DNA of 64,000 bases. Source: a virus. The stretch is taken from positions 1-64,000 of the IMG/VR virus record IMGVR_UViG_3300019888_000004. The stretch is one strand, 5' to 3'. Numbering within the stretch: the stretch's first letter is position 1; every line of letters starts with the position of its first letter. The notes beneath the pieces are model-generated. The model was not told where the DNA came from. It was given only the letters and a program-made list of their open reading frames with translations, and made no database searches. Positions 54,063 to 63,528 of the stretch are shown one piece after another. A program made the translations under genes and the position numbers.

Positions 54063-57000
54063 CTATCTCACGCAAACCGCCAAGCCTGCCCTGGCGCCGG
54101 TGGCGAACCTCGGAATTGCCTCAAGTTCGTCGGCAAGTTCCATCAAAAGCGCGTAGCTCACGGCGTCAAAAATGTGTTTTGAATCCTGCCCCGCCGCGAC
54201 GAAGTTGATCCGGCTGGATGGGTTGCCCACGGGCGCTCGACCCTTCTTCAAATCGTTCAGCATCTTGATCGTGTAGTGGCAATGCGCTGAAACCTTGATC
54301 CGGTCGAACGCCAGAAGTTGCTGCAAAAGCTGGACGCGCGCCATCATCGTGCCGCGCGGCTTCGGCACTCCAATCAGCACGATGCGACCGAGTGACACGG
54401 CGTTGATCTGAACGGCAGGGAACGTATCTGCCGTCGCCGAGTACATCGTGACTGCGCTCAAATCCGAGTAGGCTTTTGAGAGATCGAACTTCCTGCCCGC
54501 CTGTTCTTCCAAATCGGCGATCAGGTCCATGAAGTTGTTCGTGAATTCTTCCAGCGACATTTCGGTGTGCAGGCTGACGAGTTCGTCAATGACGGTGAAG
54601 TGCGCGCGGCTGATGGTGGTTTTCGTCTTGGGCAGGTACTGCGTGTAATTCTGCCGCTCGATGATGACGGCGGCGTGGTTGGTTTCGCCGGTGTCCCACC
54701 CGGTAATCAGTTCGTAGCAGTTGTTCGTCGGGTTGGCGAATTCCCATGCGTCCTCGTCCTGGCCGTCCACGTTGCCGACGACGTGAATGTTGGGCTTGAA
54801 GAAACGGCGGAAGTGCAGCGATGTTTCACCGCTGCCGTAAACCCACTTGCCCTCGACGAACCGCGCGTAAAGACCAGGATCGTAGGAGTACGTGCCTTTC
54901 AGTTCTTCAAGCTGGCCGGGCTTCAAGCGTTCGTTGTCCTCAGCCTGCATTTCGATGACGCGCGTGTTCTGTTTGAAGTTCAGGAACGTGGCCTCGCCCA
55001 TTGCCGGTCGGCCAAGCTTTACCTGCCGGTCGCGGTACTCCTCGTAGGTCAGCTTCGGCTCGATGTAGAACGCTTCATAAATCCACGAGTTCTCGCCTTC
55101 GTCGGACGGGTTGGTATCAGCCAGCCACATCTGCTGCTTGAAGTCCAGGTAGGGCATTCGCAGGCACATCAGGCCGAGACTCAGCACCGCGCGCGTGTAA
55201 AAGTTGGAAAGCTCGCTGAAATAGATCAGGCTGAACTCGCGCTCCTTCAGAATGGATTCGGCGTCGTTGTCGTTGAGCAAGGAAAACAACATGCACTCGG
55301 ACTCGCCTCCGTGAAGGTTGGTCACGCGAAAGAACGGCGTGCGCGTTGTGCCGTCAACCTTTGGACCCACCTTGTCATCGTAGTTGCGCGTCGTGAATCT
55401 CATTCCAATCCCTGATTGAATCCATTCCTTCAAAGTATAGTTTTCAAGATTTTTCCAAGCGCCAGCATCCTTTGAGTTCTTCAACACTCTCGAAAACATT
55501 GCGACGCGAGCATTTGGAGTTTCCCACAAGTGGCGAGCAATGCGGTGGAGCGCCGACCATGAATTGTGATTCACGAATCCGTTCCCAATGAAATTATGAA
55601 ATCGCGGAACGGATAAATCGTAAAGGTTCACCTGGCACGGCGTTGCAGACACAACGGCTTCCCATGCTACTTTTCCTTCCAAGAAATATCTATTTAGCAC
55701 CTCGTCGTCTTGAGACAACGAAAACGCCATCAGGCGTCTTAACTTTTCGGATGACACTGATCTTCCGCTTGATTTGCAGTATAATCCAGCAGAGCTTTTA
55801 CCACTTCCGCGAGGAATCGTTCCCCTTGGCGCCCCTCTTGAGTGTCTCGATAGATAGGCACGCCTAACCTCGGTTCTGATCTCTGGCGGGTAATCCATTG
55901 GCTCTTGCAGGTATTTAATAGTTACAGCGCCTTTTGCTTGTTTTCTGAGCAATCGAAATCCGACCGTTTTGTAAAATAGCCGAGCGTTTTGTCCGTAGAT
56001 TCCGACCTTCCAATAACCTCGGTGATTGTTTTCATGGCGTGTCCGCGAGCTTTCTATTCCGAACGCCAGGAGAATCTGATGAACGTCGCAGGCCAGGGAT
56101 TCGCTCGTGCTGGCAAACGAAGCGGTTCCCAAACGCCCCATGCCGTCGGTGTCAAATAAGCCCTGCAACAAGGCTTTTAACACTGGCTCTGGAGACTCTA
56201 TCAAACAGTCGGGGATTCGCTTGTTAAAGAAATGGACGCCAAGATGCAGGTGTCTGACTAAGGCGATCAACGAAAGGGAGGCGATTTTCCAACCATACGG
56301 ACCAGATTTGTTGAGTGTGTGATCCGGGAAATGCTCCTTCAAGATTTCTCTTACAGCCTCGACAATCTCAGAATCAGCCGTGCTAAACAGGACGCAGCTT
56401 TTGGATAAACACGTCTCCGTCATACATCCGTCTCCGATCAGAATTCCAATAAGGTAGGCCAAGGATTGATTGAGCGTCAGGTGGTGTTGTTTGATTTTTT
56501 TCCGCTCGTTGAAAAAAGAGCGCACGGCCCTTACCTGAGTTTTTGCCGCTGCCGCTATTTGGCTCACATTTGAGCATTCTCCGGCTTCAACAATGGCAGC
56601 GATCCTGTCGTGCGTGGCCGCAACGCGGTGTTCCCGCTTGTCCACGGACATGAAGTTGAGCACAAGGCAATCAAAGTCTCGCCACGCGGCTCCTTTTACC
56701 AACGGTAGCCAGACGCGCTTTCCGCTTTCGACCAGCGATTTGATTTCGGTGGAGTTCCTGTAATTGAACACGCCGTCGCAGAAAGACCACACGGGATGCC
56801 ACGGGGAAACTTTTATTGAATAGCCAAAATCAGTCACCAGCTTGATCCCGCACTTGTGATCGTTACGAAATACCGCATCAATCGCAGCGGTCGAGAAGCG
56901 TGACTGCTGAACATCAAGGGCTGTTACAGTGTGGCCGTGGCGCATTGATGAAATGCGCTTTAGCGCGCCGTCACAATGCACGATTGTGTCTGCGTCAACA

Positions 57001-57116
57001 CATTTCCCACTGAGGCGGCCACCCGACAGAAGCAGTGCTCGTTCGTACGAATTAAATACCGACCACTGGACGCCAAAGAGATTTGGCAGCCAAATGCGAT
57101 TGGGTTCTTCAGGCAC
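54063..57116 (-). CDS. terL: Terminase large subunit interrupted by an intein
   Basis: 1017 residues from GTG 57116. Extein parts: residues 1-38 and 519-1017. The N-extein ends SGGRLSGK and the C-extein continues with S, rebuilding the Walker A GGRLSGKS. REFSLIYFSELSNF (about 660) has the Walker B position, with Ser where Asp is usual and Glu kept. The nuclease domain shows ELITGWDTG, then SDLSAVTMYSATADTFP and HIFDAVSYALLM with metal-binding Asp. ATP-driven packaging of DNA into the head. A promoter and -10 precede the GTG by eight bases. Splicing is needed for function. Confidence 0.85.
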   Translation of the reverse strand: MPEEPNRIWLPNLFGVQWSVFNSYERALLLSGGRLSGKCVDADTIVHCDGALKRISSMRHGHTVTALDVQQSRFSTAAIDAVFRNDHKCGIKLVTDFGYSIKVSPWHPVWSFCDGVFNYRNSTEIKSLVESGKRVWLPLVKGAAWRDFDCLVLNFMSVDKREHRVAATHDRIAAIVEAGECSNVSQIAAAAKTQVRAVRSFFNERKKIKQHHLTLNQSLAYLIGILIGDGCMTETCLSKSCVLFSTADSEIVEAVREILKEHFPDHTLNKSGPYGWKIASLSLIALVRHLHLGVHFFNKRIPDCLIESPEPVLKALLQGLFDTDGMGRLGTASFASTSESLACDVHQILLAFGIESSRTRHENNHRGYWKVGIYGQNARLFYKTVGFRLLRKQAKGAVTIKYLQEPMDYPPEIRTEVRRAYLSRHSRGAPRGTIPRGSGKSSAGLYCKSSGRSVSSEKLRRLMAFSLSQDDEVLNRYFLEGKVAWEAVVSATPCQVNLYDLSVPRFHNFIGNGFVNHNSWSALHRIARHLWETPNARVAMFSRVLKNSKDAGAWKNLENYTLKEWIQSGIGMRFTTRNYDDKVGPKVDGTTRTPFFRVTNLHGGESECMLFSLLNDNDAESILKEREFSLIYFSELSNFYTRAVLSLGLMCLRMPYLDFKQQMWLADTNPSDEGENSWIYEAFYIEPKLTYEEYRDRQVKLGRPAMGEATFLNFKQNTRVIEMQAEDNERLKPGQLEELKGTYSYDPGLYARFVEGKWVYGSGETSLHFRRFFKPNIHVVGNVDGQDEDAWEFANPTNNCYELITGWDTGETNHAAVIIERQNYTQYLPKTKTTISRAHFTVIDELVSLHTEMSLEEFTNNFMDLIADLEEQAGRKFDLSKAYSDLSAVTMYSATADTFPAVQINAVSLGRIVLIGVPKPRGTMMARVQLLQQLLAFDRIKVSAHCHYTIKMLNDLKKGRAPVGNPSSRINFVAAGQDSKHIFDAVSYALLMELADELEAIPRFATGARAGLAVCVR
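55563..57002 (-). mobile_element. LAGLIDADG intein in the terminase Walker A motif
   Basis: 480 residues (39-518 of the precursor): first residue Cys39 with CVDADTIVHCDG, block B near GYSIKVSPWHPVW, LAGLIDADG-type motifs LAYLIGILIGDG (219-230) and LLQGLFDTDG (316-325), and a final VNHN with Ser519 as +1. All splice residues are intact, and the two dodecapeptides suggest an active homing endonuclease. Confidence 0.9.
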
Positions 57117-57390: not shown

Positions 57391-59876
57391 TTGATATTGG
57401 CTATTTACGCGAATCCGGCCTCAGCGATTCAAATTTGAAGCTTTGGCTCGGCGGCGACCCGAAGCTCTGGCCCAGCGTCCCCGTTGCGAGTGGCGAGGAA
57501 AAGAACGACGCCGACAAGCGCGTCGCCCTCCACAACCGCATCCGTTCGCGCACCGATGAAGGCCGGCAGCGCAATTTCTCCGATTGGCGCGTGTTCGCGG
57601 CCATTGACAAATCATGGTCGCAAGCTCTCTACCAGATCAGCCCCAGCATTCTCGCCAGTTTCATTGACACCGATCCGAACAGTGAGGACGTGCTGAAACA
57701 ACTCGACGGCTGGGGCTTGGCACATCTCATAACCGAAACGGTTGACGCCAAGAGCGGCAAAGCGGTGAAGAAGCTCAACCTTCCGGTCTTCTTCAAAGTG
57801 TTCGTGCCGCTGGTAAAAGCGTATGTGACGATCCGTTGGGCGAAGATAATGAATGATCGCCGGCAAACGCCGTTCTTCAAATACGAGCCGTTCAAGCAAA
57901 CCACGCCGATGCGTCTCAAGTGCGAGGCGCTCACCGACCGCATCAACGTCATCAGCAACCAGTACGGTTATTACGACGTGATGAAGCAGGCCGTGCTGAA
58001 GATGCTCAATTATTCCTACGCGCTGCAATTCATCACGAAGGAATGGGATTACGAGGAACAATGGCGCAAGGCCACGGCGGAGGATGTGGCTCTGGGAAAG
58101 ACCAAGGCCGCGCCGAGCGACGCGGACCCAAACGCGCGCCTGCCGGTGAACGAAGGCGAATACATCAAGGTGACGGACAGGGAAGGGTTGAGTTACCACA
58201 CACCGCACCCGTCGCGCTCGTTCTGGGACATGGCGCACGGCAAGCACACGATCAACTACGACCACGGCTGCCAATTCACCGGCTATTGGCGCATCGCCCG
58301 CTATCGCGAACTCAAGGAGAGCAATTTCTGGAACACGGAAGCCATCGCCCTGGGCGGCACGGACCTTATCGGGGCGCACAAGGCGTTTTTCGACAACGTG
58401 TACCCGTGCATGATGAAATACGGATGCGCCTCGGCGACCGCCGCCTCGGCTGAGATTGGCGTCGGCGCTCCGCCACTGGATCGCGAGAAAGAAATTGCCA
58501 ACCAGTATTACGGCACGGAACTGCTCGATCAAGGCGTGCTCGTGACCGAGTATTTCGAGAAATTGGTTCCCAAGGACAACGGGCTGGGCACCTACGATTG
58601 CCCGGTCTGGTTCAGATTCGTGCTCGCCGGGGATGGCTGCACGATTCTCTACGCCGCGCCGCTGCCCTACGCGCCGACGATCTATTACGGGTACGACGCC
58701 GACGAAAGCTTGTCCAAGAATTCGAGTCTCGCGCAGGAGGTTCAGCCGTTTCAGGATCATTTCGGCAATGTGCTGACGCAAATCCTGCACACGGCCAAAC
58801 AGAACCTCGCCAACCTGACGTTGATTGACGAAGATCAGTTGACCGAGAACGCCTTCAAGAAAATCGGCAACATTGGCGATGACATTTATCAGGGGTTGAA
58901 CCTGTTCGGGTTCAGCGGCAAGAAAGCGTTCCGCGGCCAGAACCGCGTGGTGGACGCCATCCACTCGTTCAATCTGCCCAAGGGCAACGTGGCCGAGTTG
59001 ACGAACGTGCTAAAGACGATTCTCGACGTGCTGGAGCGCATCCTCGTCATGTCCTCGCAGGAAATCGCGCAAGCCGCTTCGCACGAGCAGACGCGCGAGG
59101 AAGTGCGGGTCATCTCGGCTTCGATGACTTCGCGCTTGCAATTCACATCAACGCCGGTGGACATCGCGACGGCGGCGTGGAAGCGGCAACTGTATCAGGC
59201 GGTGATGGCCTACGGCGATGACGACATGTGGGCGCACCTGCCATCGGACATTCCATTGAGCAAGGAAGCATTGGAAGCGTTCGGATTTACATACGTGGAC
59301 AAGGACGCGGTGGTGGGCCGCGACCGTTACCGCGCGGTCAAGTTCAACAAGAAATCAACGGCGGTGGACATGTGGCTGTTCGCCAACACCCGGGACGACA
59401 CTGATCGCGGCAGCGACAAGGACGCGGCGGTTGCGTGGAGTCAGATCGTGCAAAACCTGATGAACAACCCGATAAGCGCGCAGGCAATAGGGGCGGATCA
59501 GATGATCGAAATTGCCAATCTGATCGGGCATCTTTCGGGCGCTTTCCCGCGCGATTGGAATTTGAAGAACGCCGCGCCGAACGTCAGCGAGGAACAGCGC
59601 CAACAGCAGGCGCAGGAGCAACTGAAGGCCGTCACGGATCAGGTGTTGAGCCAGGTGCATTCCGACATGCAGCACGCAATCGAACCGCTGTTGGAGGCCA
59701 CGAAGAAAAATAGTGACGAGCTTGGCATAGTTATGCCAGCGGTGGGCCAACTGATGACGATGCTGCGCGGAGGTGCGCCGCCGCCGATGGCTGGAGGACC
59801 GCCAATGCCGCCGCAACTGCCGCCGAACGGTCAGCCGATGGTTGATCCGAGAATGGTTGGAATGCCAATGCAATGA
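57387..59876 (+). CDS. Portal (head-tail connector) protein
   Basis: 829 residues from TTG 57387. The location directly after the terminase hub and before scaffold and capsid, and the length, fit a portal of the large podovirus type. The middle (FVPLVKAYVTIRWAKIMNDRRQTPFFKYEP, YYDVMKQAVLKMLNYSYALQFITK) and the C-terminal AEQRQQQAQEQLK helix with Pro/Gly-rich end match that group. No portal-specific motif can be proven by eye. Ends with ATGA overlap to a methylase. Confidence 0.65.
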   Translation: MIDIGYLRESGLSDSNLKLWLGGDPKLWPSVPVASGEEKNDADKRVALHNRIRSRTDEGRQRNFSDWRVFAAIDKSWSQALYQISPSILASFIDTDPNSEDVLKQLDGWGLAHLITETVDAKSGKAVKKLNLPVFFKVFVPLVKAYVTIRWAKIMNDRRQTPFFKYEPFKQTTPMRLKCEALTDRINVISNQYGYYDVMKQAVLKMLNYSYALQFITKEWDYEEQWRKATAEDVALGKTKAAPSDADPNARLPVNEGEYIKVTDREGLSYHTPHPSRSFWDMAHGKHTINYDHGCQFTGYWRIARYRELKESNFWNTEAIALGGTDLIGAHKAFFDNVYPCMMKYGCASATAASAEIGVGAPPLDREKEIANQYYGTELLDQGVLVTEYFEKLVPKDNGLGTYDCPVWFRFVLAGDGCTILYAAPLPYAPTIYYGYDADESLSKNSSLAQEVQPFQDHFGNVLTQILHTAKQNLANLTLIDEDQLTENAFKKIGNIGDDIYQGLNLFGFSGKKAFRGQNRVVDAIHSFNLPKGNVAELTNVLKTILDVLERILVMSSQEIAQAASHEQTREEVRVISASMTSRLQFTSTPVDIATAAWKRQLYQAVMAYGDDDMWAHLPSDIPLSKEALEAFGFTYVDKDAVVGRDRYRAVKFNKKSTAVDMWLFANTRDDTDRGSDKDAAVAWSQIVQNLMNNPISAQAIGADQMIEIANLIGHLSGAFPRDWNLKNAAPNVSEEQRQQQAQEQLKAVTDQVLSQVHSDMQHAIEPLLEATKKNSDELGIVMPAVGQLMTMLRGGAPPPMAGGPPMPPQLPPNGQPMVDPRMVGMPMQ

Positions 59877-60565
59877 CTCTTGCCGCAAGCGCAACCGAAA
59901 CGCAGCCTGAAATCCATCAACTTGTTGGGCGTTATTCGTCTGCGCTGCTCATACTCGGTGACTGCCTGACGATGCTCGGCGAGCATGAATGCGATGCGGT
60001 AATCAGTGACCCGCCGTATGGCATCGCTCACAAGTCGAGCTTCGACGCCTCGTGGAGCGGAACTGAAATCGCTGGCGACCGCTGCACAACAGCACGCGAT
60101 ACAGTGTGGAATCACTACGCCGACAAGCCGCGCGCCATGTTCGGCATCTCGTGGAAGCAACCGCCGCCGACGCTCGTCAGGATTTCTCTCGTCTGGAATA
60201 AAGGTCCGGCGTTCGGCGCGGGCGACCTGCGAATCCCGTGGAAGCCATCATGGGAGGAAATCTACATCGGCGGCGATGGCTGGGTCGGCAAGCGCGATGA
60301 AGGCGTCCTGAGTGGTCCGGTAGTAGTAAGCTGGGAAAGCAAGGGGAGGATGCACCCGCATCAGAAACCTGTGTGGCTCATGTGTCGGCTGCTCGAAAAG
60401 CTGCCAGACGCGAAAGTAATACTCGACCCATTCATGGGCATCGGAACAACCGGCGTCGCCTGCGCAAAACTGCACCGCAATTTCATCGGCATCGAATTGG
60501 ACGCCACGCACTTCAAAACCGCGTGCGACCGCATCGCGGACGAACTAGGAGGCGCGCTGCTATGA
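59873..60565 (+). CDS. DNA methyltransferase, beta class
   Basis: 230 residues. DPPYGI at 46-51 comes before the SAM-binding DPFMGIGTTGVACA (185-198), the order of beta-class N4-cytosine or N6-adenine enzymes. LILGDC and QKPVWLMCRLLEKLP are other conserved blocks. The central target-recognition part is only about 100 residues. It is coupled to the portal gene, so it is expressed late and could protect DNA before packaging. Confidence 0.85.
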   Translation: MTLAASATETQPEIHQLVGRYSSALLILGDCLTMLGEHECDAVISDPPYGIAHKSSFDASWSGTEIAGDRCTTARDTVWNHYADKPRAMFGISWKQPPPTLVRISLVWNKGPAFGAGDLRIPWKPSWEEIYIGGDGWVGKRDEGVLSGPVVVSWESKGRMHPHQKPVWLMCRLLEKLPDAKVILDPFMGIGTTGVACAKLHRNFIGIELDATHFKTACDRIADELGGALL

Positions 60566-60858
60566 TACAAATTGTTCAAGTGCCATTTTCAGACCCAGAC
60601 CGTCAAACACTGCATGACTGGTTGAATGCGCCCGGACGACTGCTCTACCAGCGATTCCTTTCGAGCCAGGCCAGCGAGATGATGGCCACCGCCGCGAACG
60701 TCAGAGTGCGCAACGAGCAAGGCGACAAAGAAGATTCGGAACTGCTCACCGATCAGGCGCGTGTCATCGTGGCCGCGAACAAAGCGTTCGATCAAGTGTT
60801 GACGAAAGAGTTTAAGTTCTATTGCGTGGAACTACGCCCTGAAACGCCCGCAAAATGA
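60562..60858 (+). CDS. Small virion-operon protein
   Basis: 98 residues, ATGA overlaps at both ends. QTLHDWLNAPGRLLYQRFLSS, QASEMMATAANVRVRNEQG and QARVIVAANKAFDQVLTKEF are amphipathic helices. Not recognised; a head-completion or scaffold-partner role is possible from position. Confidence 0.55.
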   Translation: MIQIVQVPFSDPDRQTLHDWLNAPGRLLYQRFLSSQASEMMATAANVRVRNEQGDKEDSELLTDQARVIVAANKAFDQVLTKEFKFYCVELRPETPAK

Positions 60859-62018
60859 TGATTGACCTTGCAGATACGTTGAGTCCATCGTGTCCAATGA
60901 TTCGCGCCGTGCGCATTTCTCTTTCCGAAGCGACCGCTTCCAAACAGCGCCGTCTTCAATCCGTTCTGAGGGAACTTCGCTCGGCTGCTAATTTCTACGC
61001 ACGGTCAATCTGGAAAGAAAAAGGTAAATTGGATGCGGAGACACATGGGCGGTACAAAAACGGATCGCTTAACTATAGCCAGCGAAATGCGGCTCTGAAA
61101 TTCGCTCTGGATTCAGTCATTTGCGCAAAGAGCTTTGGGAAACAATTAAATTGTCGCGTAAGATGCCCGGTATTCAGGAATGCGCTTCGCCTCTCAAAAC
61201 TTGTTTGCAGAATAGAACAAGGTAAGGGCTGTTTCGATTATGTGATGAAGGTTACTTCAATGAGGCTGCGTGAACCCTTGGTTCTTCCATTCAAGTCGCA
61301 CGAACGATTGAACTACTGGTTGGCGAAGGGTGGAAAGATTCTTGATGGAGCAATCATAAGCTCCACGATGGCGGCATGGATTTACGTCGAACTCCCGGAC
61401 GAGCCTGCCAAAACCGAAGGGGACATCGTTGGATTGGACACCGGCTATAAAAAGTTGCTCACCGACAGTAATGGCAACTTTTATGGGAGAGACATCGGCG
61501 ACATTGTGCAGAAAATTCGGCGCAAGAAACCAGGATCAATCGCCAAGCGCAAGGCGCGGGTGGAGCGCCAAGATTACGTCAATTTCGTCTGCCGCCGTTT
61601 GCCGTGGCAGACCGTCAAAACTTTCGTCCTCGAAGACCTGACCGGAATGAAAGTCGGTAAAGGTAATCGAGGGAAACGAAACCGCAAGCTGCTCGCTCCC
61701 TGGAGCTATCGGCAGGTGAGAACAAGGCTGGAACAACTCGCGCCGGAGAACCGTGTTCGTCTGGAATTCGTCAGCCCTAAATTCACTTCCCGAATATGCC
61801 CCTCGTGTGGGTGGGAGAGCGCGAAAAACAGGGTGGGAGAGAAGTTCTGCTGTCTGCGATGCAACTACACAGCCGACGCCGACTTTGTCGGAGCGCGGAA
61901 CATTCTCGCAAAGTTCACTACCACTGGAAACTGTCCGGAGCGTACGGTCCCGGTCGGAGATTGCGGAGAACTACTGTGCGGGAAGAAGAAGGAAGAACCT
62001 TATGCCCAAAACGCTTGA
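60855..62018 (+). CDS. TnpB-like RuvC nuclease
   Basis: 387 residues from ATG 60855, though the TnpB-like start MIRAVRISL is at 60897. RuvC residues are intact: D195 in IVGLDTG, E260 in FVLEDLTG and D343 in DADFVGARNI. The zinc finger is CPSC (315-318) plus CLRC (333-336). This is the IS200/IS605 OrfB family, ancestor of Cas12, RNA-guided where tested. No TnpA is visible. The start is coupled by ATGA to the upstream head gene, and the end overlaps the scaffold-like gene by 17 bases, so it has become part of the operon. It may also be a diverged regulator or homing nuclease. Confidence 0.8.
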   Translation: MMIDLADTLSPSCPMIRAVRISLSEATASKQRRLQSVLRELRSAANFYARSIWKEKGKLDAETHGRYKNGSLNYSQRNAALKFALDSVICAKSFGKQLNCRVRCPVFRNALRLSKLVCRIEQGKGCFDYVMKVTSMRLREPLVLPFKSHERLNYWLAKGGKILDGAIISSTMAAWIYVELPDEPAKTEGDIVGLDTGYKKLLTDSNGNFYGRDIGDIVQKIRRKKPGSIAKRKARVERQDYVNFVCRRLPWQTVKTFVLEDLTGMKVGKGNRGKRNRKLLAPWSYRQVRTRLEQLAPENRVRLEFVSPKFTSRICPSCGWESAKNRVGEKFCCLRCNYTADADFVGARNILAKFTTTGNCPERTVPVGDCGELLCGKKKEEPYAQNA

Positions 62019-63528
62019 TGTTTCATTCACGGAAACGAAAAGAGGGAAGAAGAAGGATGAGCCAACCGTTCCTGCAACCGTAGCGGTTCAGCCTGAGCCA
62101 ACGCCGCCCGCGCCCACCGCCGAGGAACTCGAAGCGCGCCGGAACACTCTGCACAAATCGCTGTTTGGCTCTGATCTTCCCAAAGAGCCTGCCGCTCCAG
62201 TTGTTGCCGTCGCGCCGGTCGAGCCACCGCCCGAACCGCCAGCCGCCCCTGTCGTGGCTGCGCCCGCCGCCCCTGCGCCTGCGCCTGCGCCCGAACCAGT
62301 CCAACCCGCGCCAGCATCAAGAACGGAGATCGAAACCGCCGCCCGCGCCGCCGCCAGGATGGTGATGGATGAAAAGCCAGCGGCACCGGCGCAACCTCCA
62401 CCACCGACCGCGCAACCAGCGTTCGAGTTGTCGCCCGAGGACAAGGCCGACTACGAAGTCGTACAGTTTTTGGAACGCACCGAGCCAGACAAGCACGCCG
62501 GGGCAGGCCAGAGATTTCTCGACTACACCAAGGCGCACTACGCTTATCAGGCCGAGTGGTCGGCCAACAACAGCAACGCGGAGTTTGATCCCAATTCATC
62601 CGAGCACGAGGCATGGTACAAGCGCCATGATCCCGGCCTTGACGCCGACGAGATTGATCGCGGGCGCATGACGATGCTGGCCGAACGCGCCGCGCTCAAG
62701 ATCGTTCAACCGCAGATGGAGGCGATGAGCCGCGAGAAAACCGAACGCGAACAGCGCGAGGCGATGAATAAGGCCATGCCGACCGTGGTGGGGTATGTGC
62801 AGCAGCGCATCGTGGAATTTGTCAGCGCCGTGGATGAGACGCTGGCCGCGCACATCAAGGACGACAAAGGCAAGCCGCTGCTCACCGAGGAAGCCATCGC
62901 CAAAATTGACGCCGCCGATTCGATTGCCAAGCGCGTGCTCGATGACGTGGTGCGTTATCAACTTGAGCCGATGGTGATGGCCCTGGAAATGACTACCGTG
63001 GAGAAGGGCGGCTTCAAGTTGAATCCAGCAGTCAACCCGGCTCATCGTCAGATTGCCGATTACATTGACAAGGCCGAACGCGAAATGCTGGCCGCTCCAG
63101 CCGAGGTCCGCATTCAGAACGGGAAAGAGTTTGCGACCATCGCGCAGCTTCAGCGCATGAAGCAATCCATCGAATCCGGCGGCGGCACGCGAGAGGGTAA
63201 GGAGCAGCAAATTGCCCAGGTCAACGACCGTTATTACACGCTGGGCGTGGATGACATCGAAGCGATTATCGTCGAAGAATGCGCTCAGACCGCCCGCACG
63301 CGCATTGATTTCGACGATGGAGTGGCGAAACGCAAATATCCACAGGCCAACGGCGCTGGACAACCGGCAGCGCAATCGGCGCACGCCGCACCAGCAGTGC
63401 CGGCAAGTGGGAAGCCCAATTCGCCCACCATCAGTTCAGCCGGCGATACGGTAGTGCAACGGGACCGAAATGCGCCGACGATAAAAAAAGCAGGAGAACA
63501 GATGGAAAGCATGTTGTTCAAGCGGTAA
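62002..63528 (+). CDS. Scaffold-like head protein
   Basis: 508 residues from ATG 62002, preceded by a GGAAG ribosome site. Pro/Ala/Val-rich N-terminal about 120 residues (PAPAPEPVQPAPASRTEIE), then acidic helical segments (DYEVVQFLERTEPDKHAG, EAMSREKTEREQREAMNKAMP) and a helical end. It lies after the portal and before a gene in capsid position, fitting a scaffold or scaffold-assembly protein. A protease motif is not visible. Confidence 0.6.
   Translation: MPKTLDVSFTETKRGKKKDEPTVPATVAVQPEPTPPAPTAEELEARRNTLHKSLFGSDLPKEPAAPVVAVAPVEPPPEPPAAPVVAAPAAPAPAPAPEPVQPAPASRTEIETAARAAARMVMDEKPAAPAQPPPPTAQPAFELSPEDKADYEVVQFLERTEPDKHAGAGQRFLDYTKAHYAYQAEWSANNSNAEFDPNSSEHEAWYKRHDPGLDADEIDRGRMTMLAERAALKIVQPQMEAMSREKTEREQREAMNKAMPTVVGYVQQRIVEFVSAVDETLAAHIKDDKGKPLLTEEAIAKIDAADSIAKRVLDDVVRYQLEPMVMALEMTTVEKGGFKLNPAVNPAHRQIADYIDKAEREMLAAPAEVRIQNGKEFATIAQLQRMKQSIESGGGTREGKEQQIAQVNDRYYTLGVDDIEAIIVEECAQTARTRIDFDDGVAKRKYPQANGAGQPAAQSAHAAPAVPASGKPNSPTISSAGDTVVQRDRNAPTIKKAGEQMESMLFKR

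What the first reader, a model, noticed from the sequence alone, without database searches (positions are those of the whole stretch)
60855..62018. TnpB-like RNA-guided-type nuclease domesticated in the head operon
A complete RuvC triad (D195, E260, D343) and zinc finger remain in a stand-alone TnpB with no transposase. Its start is coupled to the upstream head gene by ATGA and its end overlaps the scaffold gene by 17 bases. Such exact embedding suggests selection for use by the phage: homing into the head locus, attack on competitor phages, or regulation. An omega-type guide RNA would be expected at or after its 3' end, near 61900-62020.
Basis: partly seen in the sequence, partly recalled or inferred. 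Interest (0 to 1): 0.7.

Follow-up and report, generated by a model that had tools for sequence, protein, structure and literature searches.

The report
Transposase-free TnpB inserted in phage head genes
A bacterial virus carries, wedged between two of its head genes, a tiny selfish element made of one RNA-guided DNA-cutting enzyme and its built-in guide RNA; comparison with related viruses suggests it is an inserted hitchhiker that may copy itself into relatives lacking it, rather than a tamed viral tool.

Summary
The gene is real: a full-length TnpB with intact catalytic residues (D195/E260/D343, four zinc-binding cysteines; confident AlphaFold model of Cas12f/TnpB fold), with no TnpA in the 67-kb phage record. 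It belongs to a phage-enriched, mostly TnpA-less TnpB clade; one member (L042) still sits behind an IS607-type serine transposase. Across 26 loci the 3' end of the gene carries a conserved RNA fold: a hairpin whose loop pairs with the last bases before the element's end, with many compensatory changes. Related copies stop being alike there. 'Domesticated by exact embedding' is not supported: 23 kin records covering the junction lack this gene, the likely start is ATG 60897 (not 60855), and the last ~13 codons, which make the 17-base overlap, are flanking phage DNA read through to a chance stop. The head module also holds a TerL intein, HNH genes and, in one kin phage, an unrelated IS605 TnpB at the same stop codon. 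Best reading: a selfish RNA-guided homing-type element. Activity, guide use and homing are untested.

The parts
60855..62018 (+). tnpB-like ORF as first read (387 aa); likely true start ATG 60897
60897..61977 (+). predicted transposase-free TnpB element core: coding region plus 3'-overlapping guide-RNA scaffold (left boundary not determined; lies between 60858 and 60897)
   Evidence: MIR start shared by clade; copies in kin elements share only the ORF, 0-60 nt before it, and the 3' end
61437..61439 (+). RuvC catalytic Asp 195 codon
61632..61634 (+). RuvC catalytic Glu 260 codon
61881..61883 (+). RuvC catalytic Asp 343 codon
61931..61957 (+). predicted guide-RNA hairpin 1 (CUG-U-CCGG / CCGG-U-CGG) with 11-nt loop AGCGUACGGUC
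61941..61948 (+). pseudoknot strand in the hairpin-1 loop (CGUACGGU)
61973..61980 (+). pseudoknot partner ACUGUGCG; ACUGU (61973-61977) is the predicted scaffold end
61978..61997 (+). predicted guide (GCGGGAAGAAGAAGGAAGAA), native 5' UTR/RBS region of the scaffold gene; boundary uncertain by about 3 nt
   Evidence: inference
60562..60858 (+). conserved ~98-aa head-module gene (gpX98), native C-terminus kept
62002..63528 (+). scaffold-like head gene, next after gpX98 in most kin phages

Best explanation
A transposase-free TnpB element of IS607-like descent has inserted at the end of a small conserved head-module gene (gpX98), just before the scaffold gene. It makes a RuvC nuclease of about 360-373 residues; the 3' end of its own mRNA folds into a guide-RNA scaffold (hairpin plus loop-to-end pseudoknot), and the next ~16-20 nt, taken from whatever DNA flanks the insertion, is the guide. 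Here the guide would be the 5' UTR of the scaffold gene, so the nuclease should cut the uninserted allele of closely related phages in the same cell, and repair from the inserted copy would spread the element: an RNA-guided equivalent of a free-standing homing endonuclease. Shown by sequence: intact enzyme residues, conserved RNA fold, element 3' boundary in relatives, absence from kin phages. Inferred: guide identity, activity, homing.
For: Intact triad and zinc finger; full-length Cas12f/TnpB fold, mean pLDDT 82, Foldseek TM 0.62-0.64 to Cas12f and 0.51-0.54 to TnpB. Hairpin 1 plus pseudoknot on 26 loci: 95.2% of cells paired vs 80.1% shuffled, 38 double-change cells vs 8.1, 0/500 shuffles; slid versions at most 55%. 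Conservative 20-locus pseudoknot-only test: 99.0% vs 95.2%, covariation 0/500. In the window loop 1 pairs with the terminal motif over 8 bp. Copies at different sites lose similarity at or within a few bases of the predicted 3' end. 23 kin records spanning the junction hold no member of this clade. Up to 4 copies in one phage. One member has an IS607-type TnpA directly upstream. The head module also holds an intein and HNH genes, and a kin phage has an IS605 TnpB at the same stop codon, with empty alleles showing TAM TTCAT (L086, L087) and 16-17/20 guide match. TnpB cutting of uninserted alleles is published (PMC8612924; PMC11870625).
Against: No close uninserted allele of this phage was found; the only exact match to the predicted 20-nt guide in IMG/VR is in an unrelated phage, so guide-target matching is untested. 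The window's second hairpin is weak or missing, and its RNA alone folds no better than shuffles (z=0.38 and -0.69; pseudoknots not modelled). TAM and left end not identified. Some outlier terminal motifs were placed with the pseudoknot in mind (L032, L034, L049, L052-L054).
Confidence: 0.6

Rival explanations
1. A passive, now immobile IS607-like TnpB remnant: the protein may still be made and may still bind RNA, but it neither homes nor helps the phage and is on its way to decay.
For: No transposase in the record; weak second hairpin; the closest relative L021 has an internal deletion and has lost the third catalytic Asp; GC3 of the gene (0.575) differs from the portal (0.77).
Against: The window copy keeps every catalytic and zinc residue, a full predicted fold and a compensated 8-bp pseudoknot.
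Confidence: 0.22
2. A domesticated phage tool (head-gene regulator, or weapon against unrelated competitor phages) kept because it benefits this phage.
For: Compact embedding in a structural operon; nuclease-dead TnpB homologues (TldR) are known to serve temperate phages (PMC13418256).
Against: Not conserved at this site in any of 23 kin records; no conserved genetic partner seen across the clade; active site intact, unlike TldR; start and stop overlaps explained by insertion and read-through; no match of the guide to another phage's head genes.
Confidence: 0.1
3. A weapon by side effect: a homing element whose cutting of uninserted kin also excludes them in mixed infection, as for an intron endonuclease of a jumbo phage, so it is partly beneficial to its carrier.
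For: Precedent for an intron-encoded homing endonuclease (PMC11620839); the predicted target lies at a head gene likely to be essential.
Against: Nothing here separates it from pure homing; no target allele in hand.
Confidence: 0.08

Closest known systems
IS607 TnpB with RAGATH-18-derived reRNA (ISFba1 TnpB, PDB 8IAZ; PMC11061315)
   Same: Size (~390 aa), RuvC triad, guide at the 3' end of the scaffold RNA; in that RNA too an apical loop pairs with bases close to the guide (PK2). One clade member (L042) has an IS607-type serine transposase directly upstream.
   Different: No RAGATH-18 or other Rfam match; the RNA overlaps the coding region here; protein similarity to NCBIfam IS607_TnpB is low (25 bits); no TnpA in this phage.
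IS200/IS605 TnpB (ISDra2; PMC8612924)
   Same: RNA-guided nuclease architecture; [quoted passage not shown]
   Different: Clade separate from the nine canonical TnpBs sampled (support 91/77), shorter RuvC-to-zinc-finger stretch (window 161 residues vs 164-193), no Y1 TnpA, no identifiable ends.
PHROG 506 'transposase'
   Same: All 22 clade members scanned match it (best 1e-37): the protein family is already catalogued in phages.
   Different: The catalogue entry gives no guide RNA, element boundaries or mechanism.
Free-standing and intron or intein homing endonucleases of phages (HNH, LAGLIDADG)
   Same: Intergenic single-gene insertion that leaves neighbours intact, absent from kin, in a module that also holds HNH genes and a LAGLIDADG intein.
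   Different: Target would be set by an RNA copied from the flank, not by the protein.
TldR, nuclease-dead TnpB repressors of phages (PMC13418256)
   Same: TnpB fold carried by phages.
   Different: RuvC triad intact here; no conserved partner gene seen.

Membership tests
TnpB / OMEGA RNA-guided nucleases | RuvC D-E-D triad and TNB zinc finger | tested here: met
   D195, E260, D343; C315, C318, C333, C336; PF07282 E=3e-16
TnpB / OMEGA RNA-guided nucleases | Full-length TnpB/Cas12f fold including N-terminal RNA-binding part | tested here: met
   AlphaFold pLDDT ~90 over most of residues 1-344; Foldseek to 8iaz, 8h1j and Cas12f; NF040570 over residues 9-339, just below its cut-off
TnpB / OMEGA RNA-guided nucleases | Guide-RNA scaffold at the 3' end of the gene | tested here: met
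   Conserved hairpin plus pseudoknot with compensatory changes over 26 loci, window included; the RNA itself was not observed
TnpB / OMEGA RNA-guided nucleases | Guide is flanking DNA directly after the element end | tested here: inconclusive
   Relatives diverge at the predicted end; no uninserted allele of the window phage
TnpB / OMEGA RNA-guided nucleases | RNA-guided, TAM-dependent DNA cleavage | not testable with these tools
   needs biochemistry
IS607 or IS200/IS605 insertion sequence (autonomous) | Linked TnpA (serine or Y1 transposase) | tested here: not met
   PF01797 and PF00239 absent from the 67-kb record; among 17 records a TnpA sits beside a clade copy only at L042
TldR (domesticated nuclease-dead TnpB) | Inactivated RuvC triad and conserved partner gene | tested here: not met
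   triad intact; kin lack the gene
Type V CRISPR effector (Cas12f) | Adjacent CRISPR array | tested here: not met
   no repeat array in window 40000-64000 or in G000 60000-67022
Homing endonuclease gene (functional class) | Site empty in relatives and neighbours left intact | tested here: met
   gpX98 and scaffold adjacent or nearly so in kin
Homing endonuclease gene (functional class) | Nuclease cuts the empty allele and the gene is copied in | not testable with these tools
   needs coinfection experiment

The most novel reading that the evidence does not exclude
A phage-specialised lineage of TnpB has lost its transposase and become an RNA-guided homing element: a gene-sized unit (ORF plus overlapping guide-RNA scaffold, no recognisable ends) that spreads among phages by cutting uninserted alleles, each insertion reprogramming the guide to its own empty site.
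Probability: 0.35. Interest if true: 0.75.

Novelty: new variant of a known kind. Interest (0 to 1): 0.55.

Why it matters
TnpB is the ancestor of Cas12, and its cutting of uninserted DNA is thought to serve transposon retention. A phage-borne, mostly transposase-free clade whose unit of movement is just the gene and its overlapping guide RNA would link TnpB to classical homing endonucleases, give compact nucleases with a guide-RNA fold not in Rfam, and offer a directly testable system for RNA-guided gene drive during phage coinfection.

Tried and rejected
Single-sequence search for close relatives of the protein or of the major capsid protein in viral contigs gave nothing. Rfam at gathering and permissive thresholds: no guide-RNA family in the window or seven relatives; the tRNA hits in L038 are unrelated. 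RNA folding of the window alone: no better than shuffles, pseudoknots not modelled. The weak hit at 65677-65832 lies in an HNH protein, not a second TnpB. Exact search for the guide: one match in an unrelated lysine-rich coding region. Flank-to-guide direct repeats as target duplications: present in L021, L022, L023, L027 (single tests p 0.005-0.02 among 26) but not in the window or most others; left open. CRISPR effector: no array. A Pfam call on L085:379-957 failed on a stop codon. The PNAS classification paper of TnpB/Cas12 (PMC10691335) is not held.

Full report
WHAT IS THERE. The window lies in G000, an IMG/VR virus record of 67,022 bases. The ORF 60855-62018 encodes a TnpB-like protein with the RuvC triad D195/E260/D343 and cysteines 315/318/333/336. 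Pfam, PHROGs and NCBIfam agree on TnpB; the NCBIfam guided_TnpB model is matched nearly end to end but just under its cut-off, so it is a divergent member. AlphaFold with 22 clade sequences gives mean pLDDT 82 and a Cas12f/TnpB fold. Neither type of TnpA (Y1, serine recombinase) is found in the record, and there is no CRISPR array nearby.

THE COMPACT EMBEDDING. The N-terminus M-I-R is shared by most of the clade and corresponds to ATG 60897, so the ATG inside the ATGA at 60855 is probably not the start. The residues after NILAKF have pLDDT ~29, vary wildly between relatives, and from 61978 on come from DNA beyond the predicted end of the element. The 17-base overlap with the scaffold ORF is therefore what an insertion without its own stop codon would give. 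In the relative L021 the TnpB frame likewise runs on into the next gene.

KIN PHAGES LACK IT. Portal-based searches found kin with 33-55% identical portals. Their order is terL(-), portal, gpX98, scaffold, major capsid, with gpX98 and scaffold a few bases apart or overlapping in L004, L006 and L011. The C-terminus of gpX98 in the window (ELRPETPAK*) matches L004 (ELKPTVPNKIA*), so the gene was left intact. A profile of the TnpB clade finds nothing of this clade in 24 kin records, 23 of which span the junction (some are near-duplicates). The one hit, L085, is a canonical IS605 TnpB (OrfB_IS605, HTH_OrfB) on the other strand at the same gpX98 stop codon. Comparison with empty relatives shows a clean insertion, with TAM-side sequence TTCAT kept in L086 and L087 (CTCAT in L089, L090) and 16-17 of 20 guide bases matching in the empty alleles. 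So TnpB insertion at this junction happened at least twice, independently.

A MODULE FULL OF HOMING-TYPE GENES. The terminase holds a LAGLIDADG intein at its Walker A motif (55563-57002) that the kin lack. An HNH_3 gene follows the major capsid gene (G000 65578-66336). HNH relatives sit between terL and portal in L085, L086, L088-L091 and between portal and gpX98 in L080.

THE CLADE AND ITS RNA. Pattern searches found 31 loci in viral contigs against 3 in 84,980 bacterial and archaeal genomes with closely similar patterns. In a tree of the RuvC-to-zinc region the 24 clade rows form one group (support 91/77), with window plus L021 (98/97) as sister to the rest. Several phages carry multiple copies (four in G002). 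L042 has an IS607-type TnpA, HTH plus serine recombinase, directly upstream, so the clade probably descends from IS607-like elements; the other records tested have no TnpA beside their clade copy.

At the 3' ends, 26 loci share a hairpin (stem such as TAGAGG/CCTCTA, loop such as AGTATATRGTC), usually a second hairpin, and a terminal motif RACTRT; the loop pairs with the terminal motif. Paired states include ATAGT/ACTAT, ACAGT/ACTGT, GTGGT/ACTAC, ATCATT/AATGAT and TTCGGA/TCCGAA. Counted formally, hairpin 1 plus pseudoknot pairs in 95.2% of cells (80.1% shuffled), with 38 double-change cells (8.1 shuffled), 0/500 shuffles reaching either, and at most 55% when slid. On a conservative subset of 20 loci the pseudoknot signal is smaller but still beyond all shuffles for pairing and covariation. 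For the window, the loop CGUACGGU pairs with ACUGUGCG over 8 bp; 2/400 shuffles and 11/400 random windows contain a comparable nested arrangement. DNA similarity between copies at different sites ends at or within a few bases of the terminal motif in most comparisons, which marks the element end and hence the start of the guide. In the window that is about 61977/61978, and the guide would be GCGGGAAGAAGAAGGAAGAA, in the scaffold gene's 5' UTR.

HOW IT MOST LIKELY WORKS. Established work shows that TnpB uses a 3'-end RNA whose guide is flanking DNA and cuts a target next to a TAM, which fits cutting of the uninserted allele (PMC8612924), and that it can act as a gene drive between plasmid copies (PMC11870625). 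The element here has those sequence parts except an identified TAM and left end. I infer that it acts as an RNA-guided homing element among coinfecting relatives; guide use, cleavage and homing are not shown. An inactive remnant is the main rival. Domestication for phage benefit is weak, because the gene is not conserved at the site and the apparent fine-tuning has a simpler cause.

NOVELTY. The protein family is catalogued (phrog_506) and TnpB biology is known. The guide-RNA fold of this clade has no Rfam entry, though a loop-to-3'-end pseudoknot also exists in IS607 reRNA (PMC11061315). In the open-access library searched I found no account of phage TnpBs as transposase-free homing elements, but subscription papers and preprints are mostly not held, including the main TnpB classification paper.

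Noticed in passing
window 55563-57002 (-): LAGLIDADG intein inserted at the Walker A motif (SGK|C...HN|S) of the terminase large subunit; absent from the kin examined.
   Followed up: partly
G000 65578-66336 (L003:5579-6337): HNH_3 endonuclease gene directly after the major capsid gene; related HNH genes at other spots of the head module in L080, L085, L086, L088-L091.
   Followed up: partly
window 59873-60565: DNA N4/N6 methyltransferase gene between portal and gpX98, not detected in the kin phages.
   Followed up: no
window 61980-61999 and 62044-62063: 18/20-identical near-repeat covering the predicted guide and a stretch 64 nt downstream inside the scaffold gene (0.02 expected by chance in 64 kb); possible insertion relic, partial self-target or shared lysine-rich coding.
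   Followed up: partly
L085 4645-5909: Canonical IS605 TnpB inserted exactly at the gpX98 stop codon on the opposite strand; empty alleles in L086/L087 give TAM TTCAT and a 16-17/20 guide match: a clean natural homing-site pair.
   Followed up: yes
L027, L022, L021, L023: 9-13 nt direct repeats between the upstream flank and the predicted guide region of clade elements.
   Followed up: partly
L039, L044, L047 upstream of tnpB: A small ORF ending like a ribbon-helix-helix protein (...MSKLITKLILKELENK*) is shared upstream of TnpB while the downstream flanks differ: it may travel with the element.
   Followed up: no
L038: Contig stretch with at least 15 tRNA genes in under 9 kb around the TnpB.
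   Followed up: no
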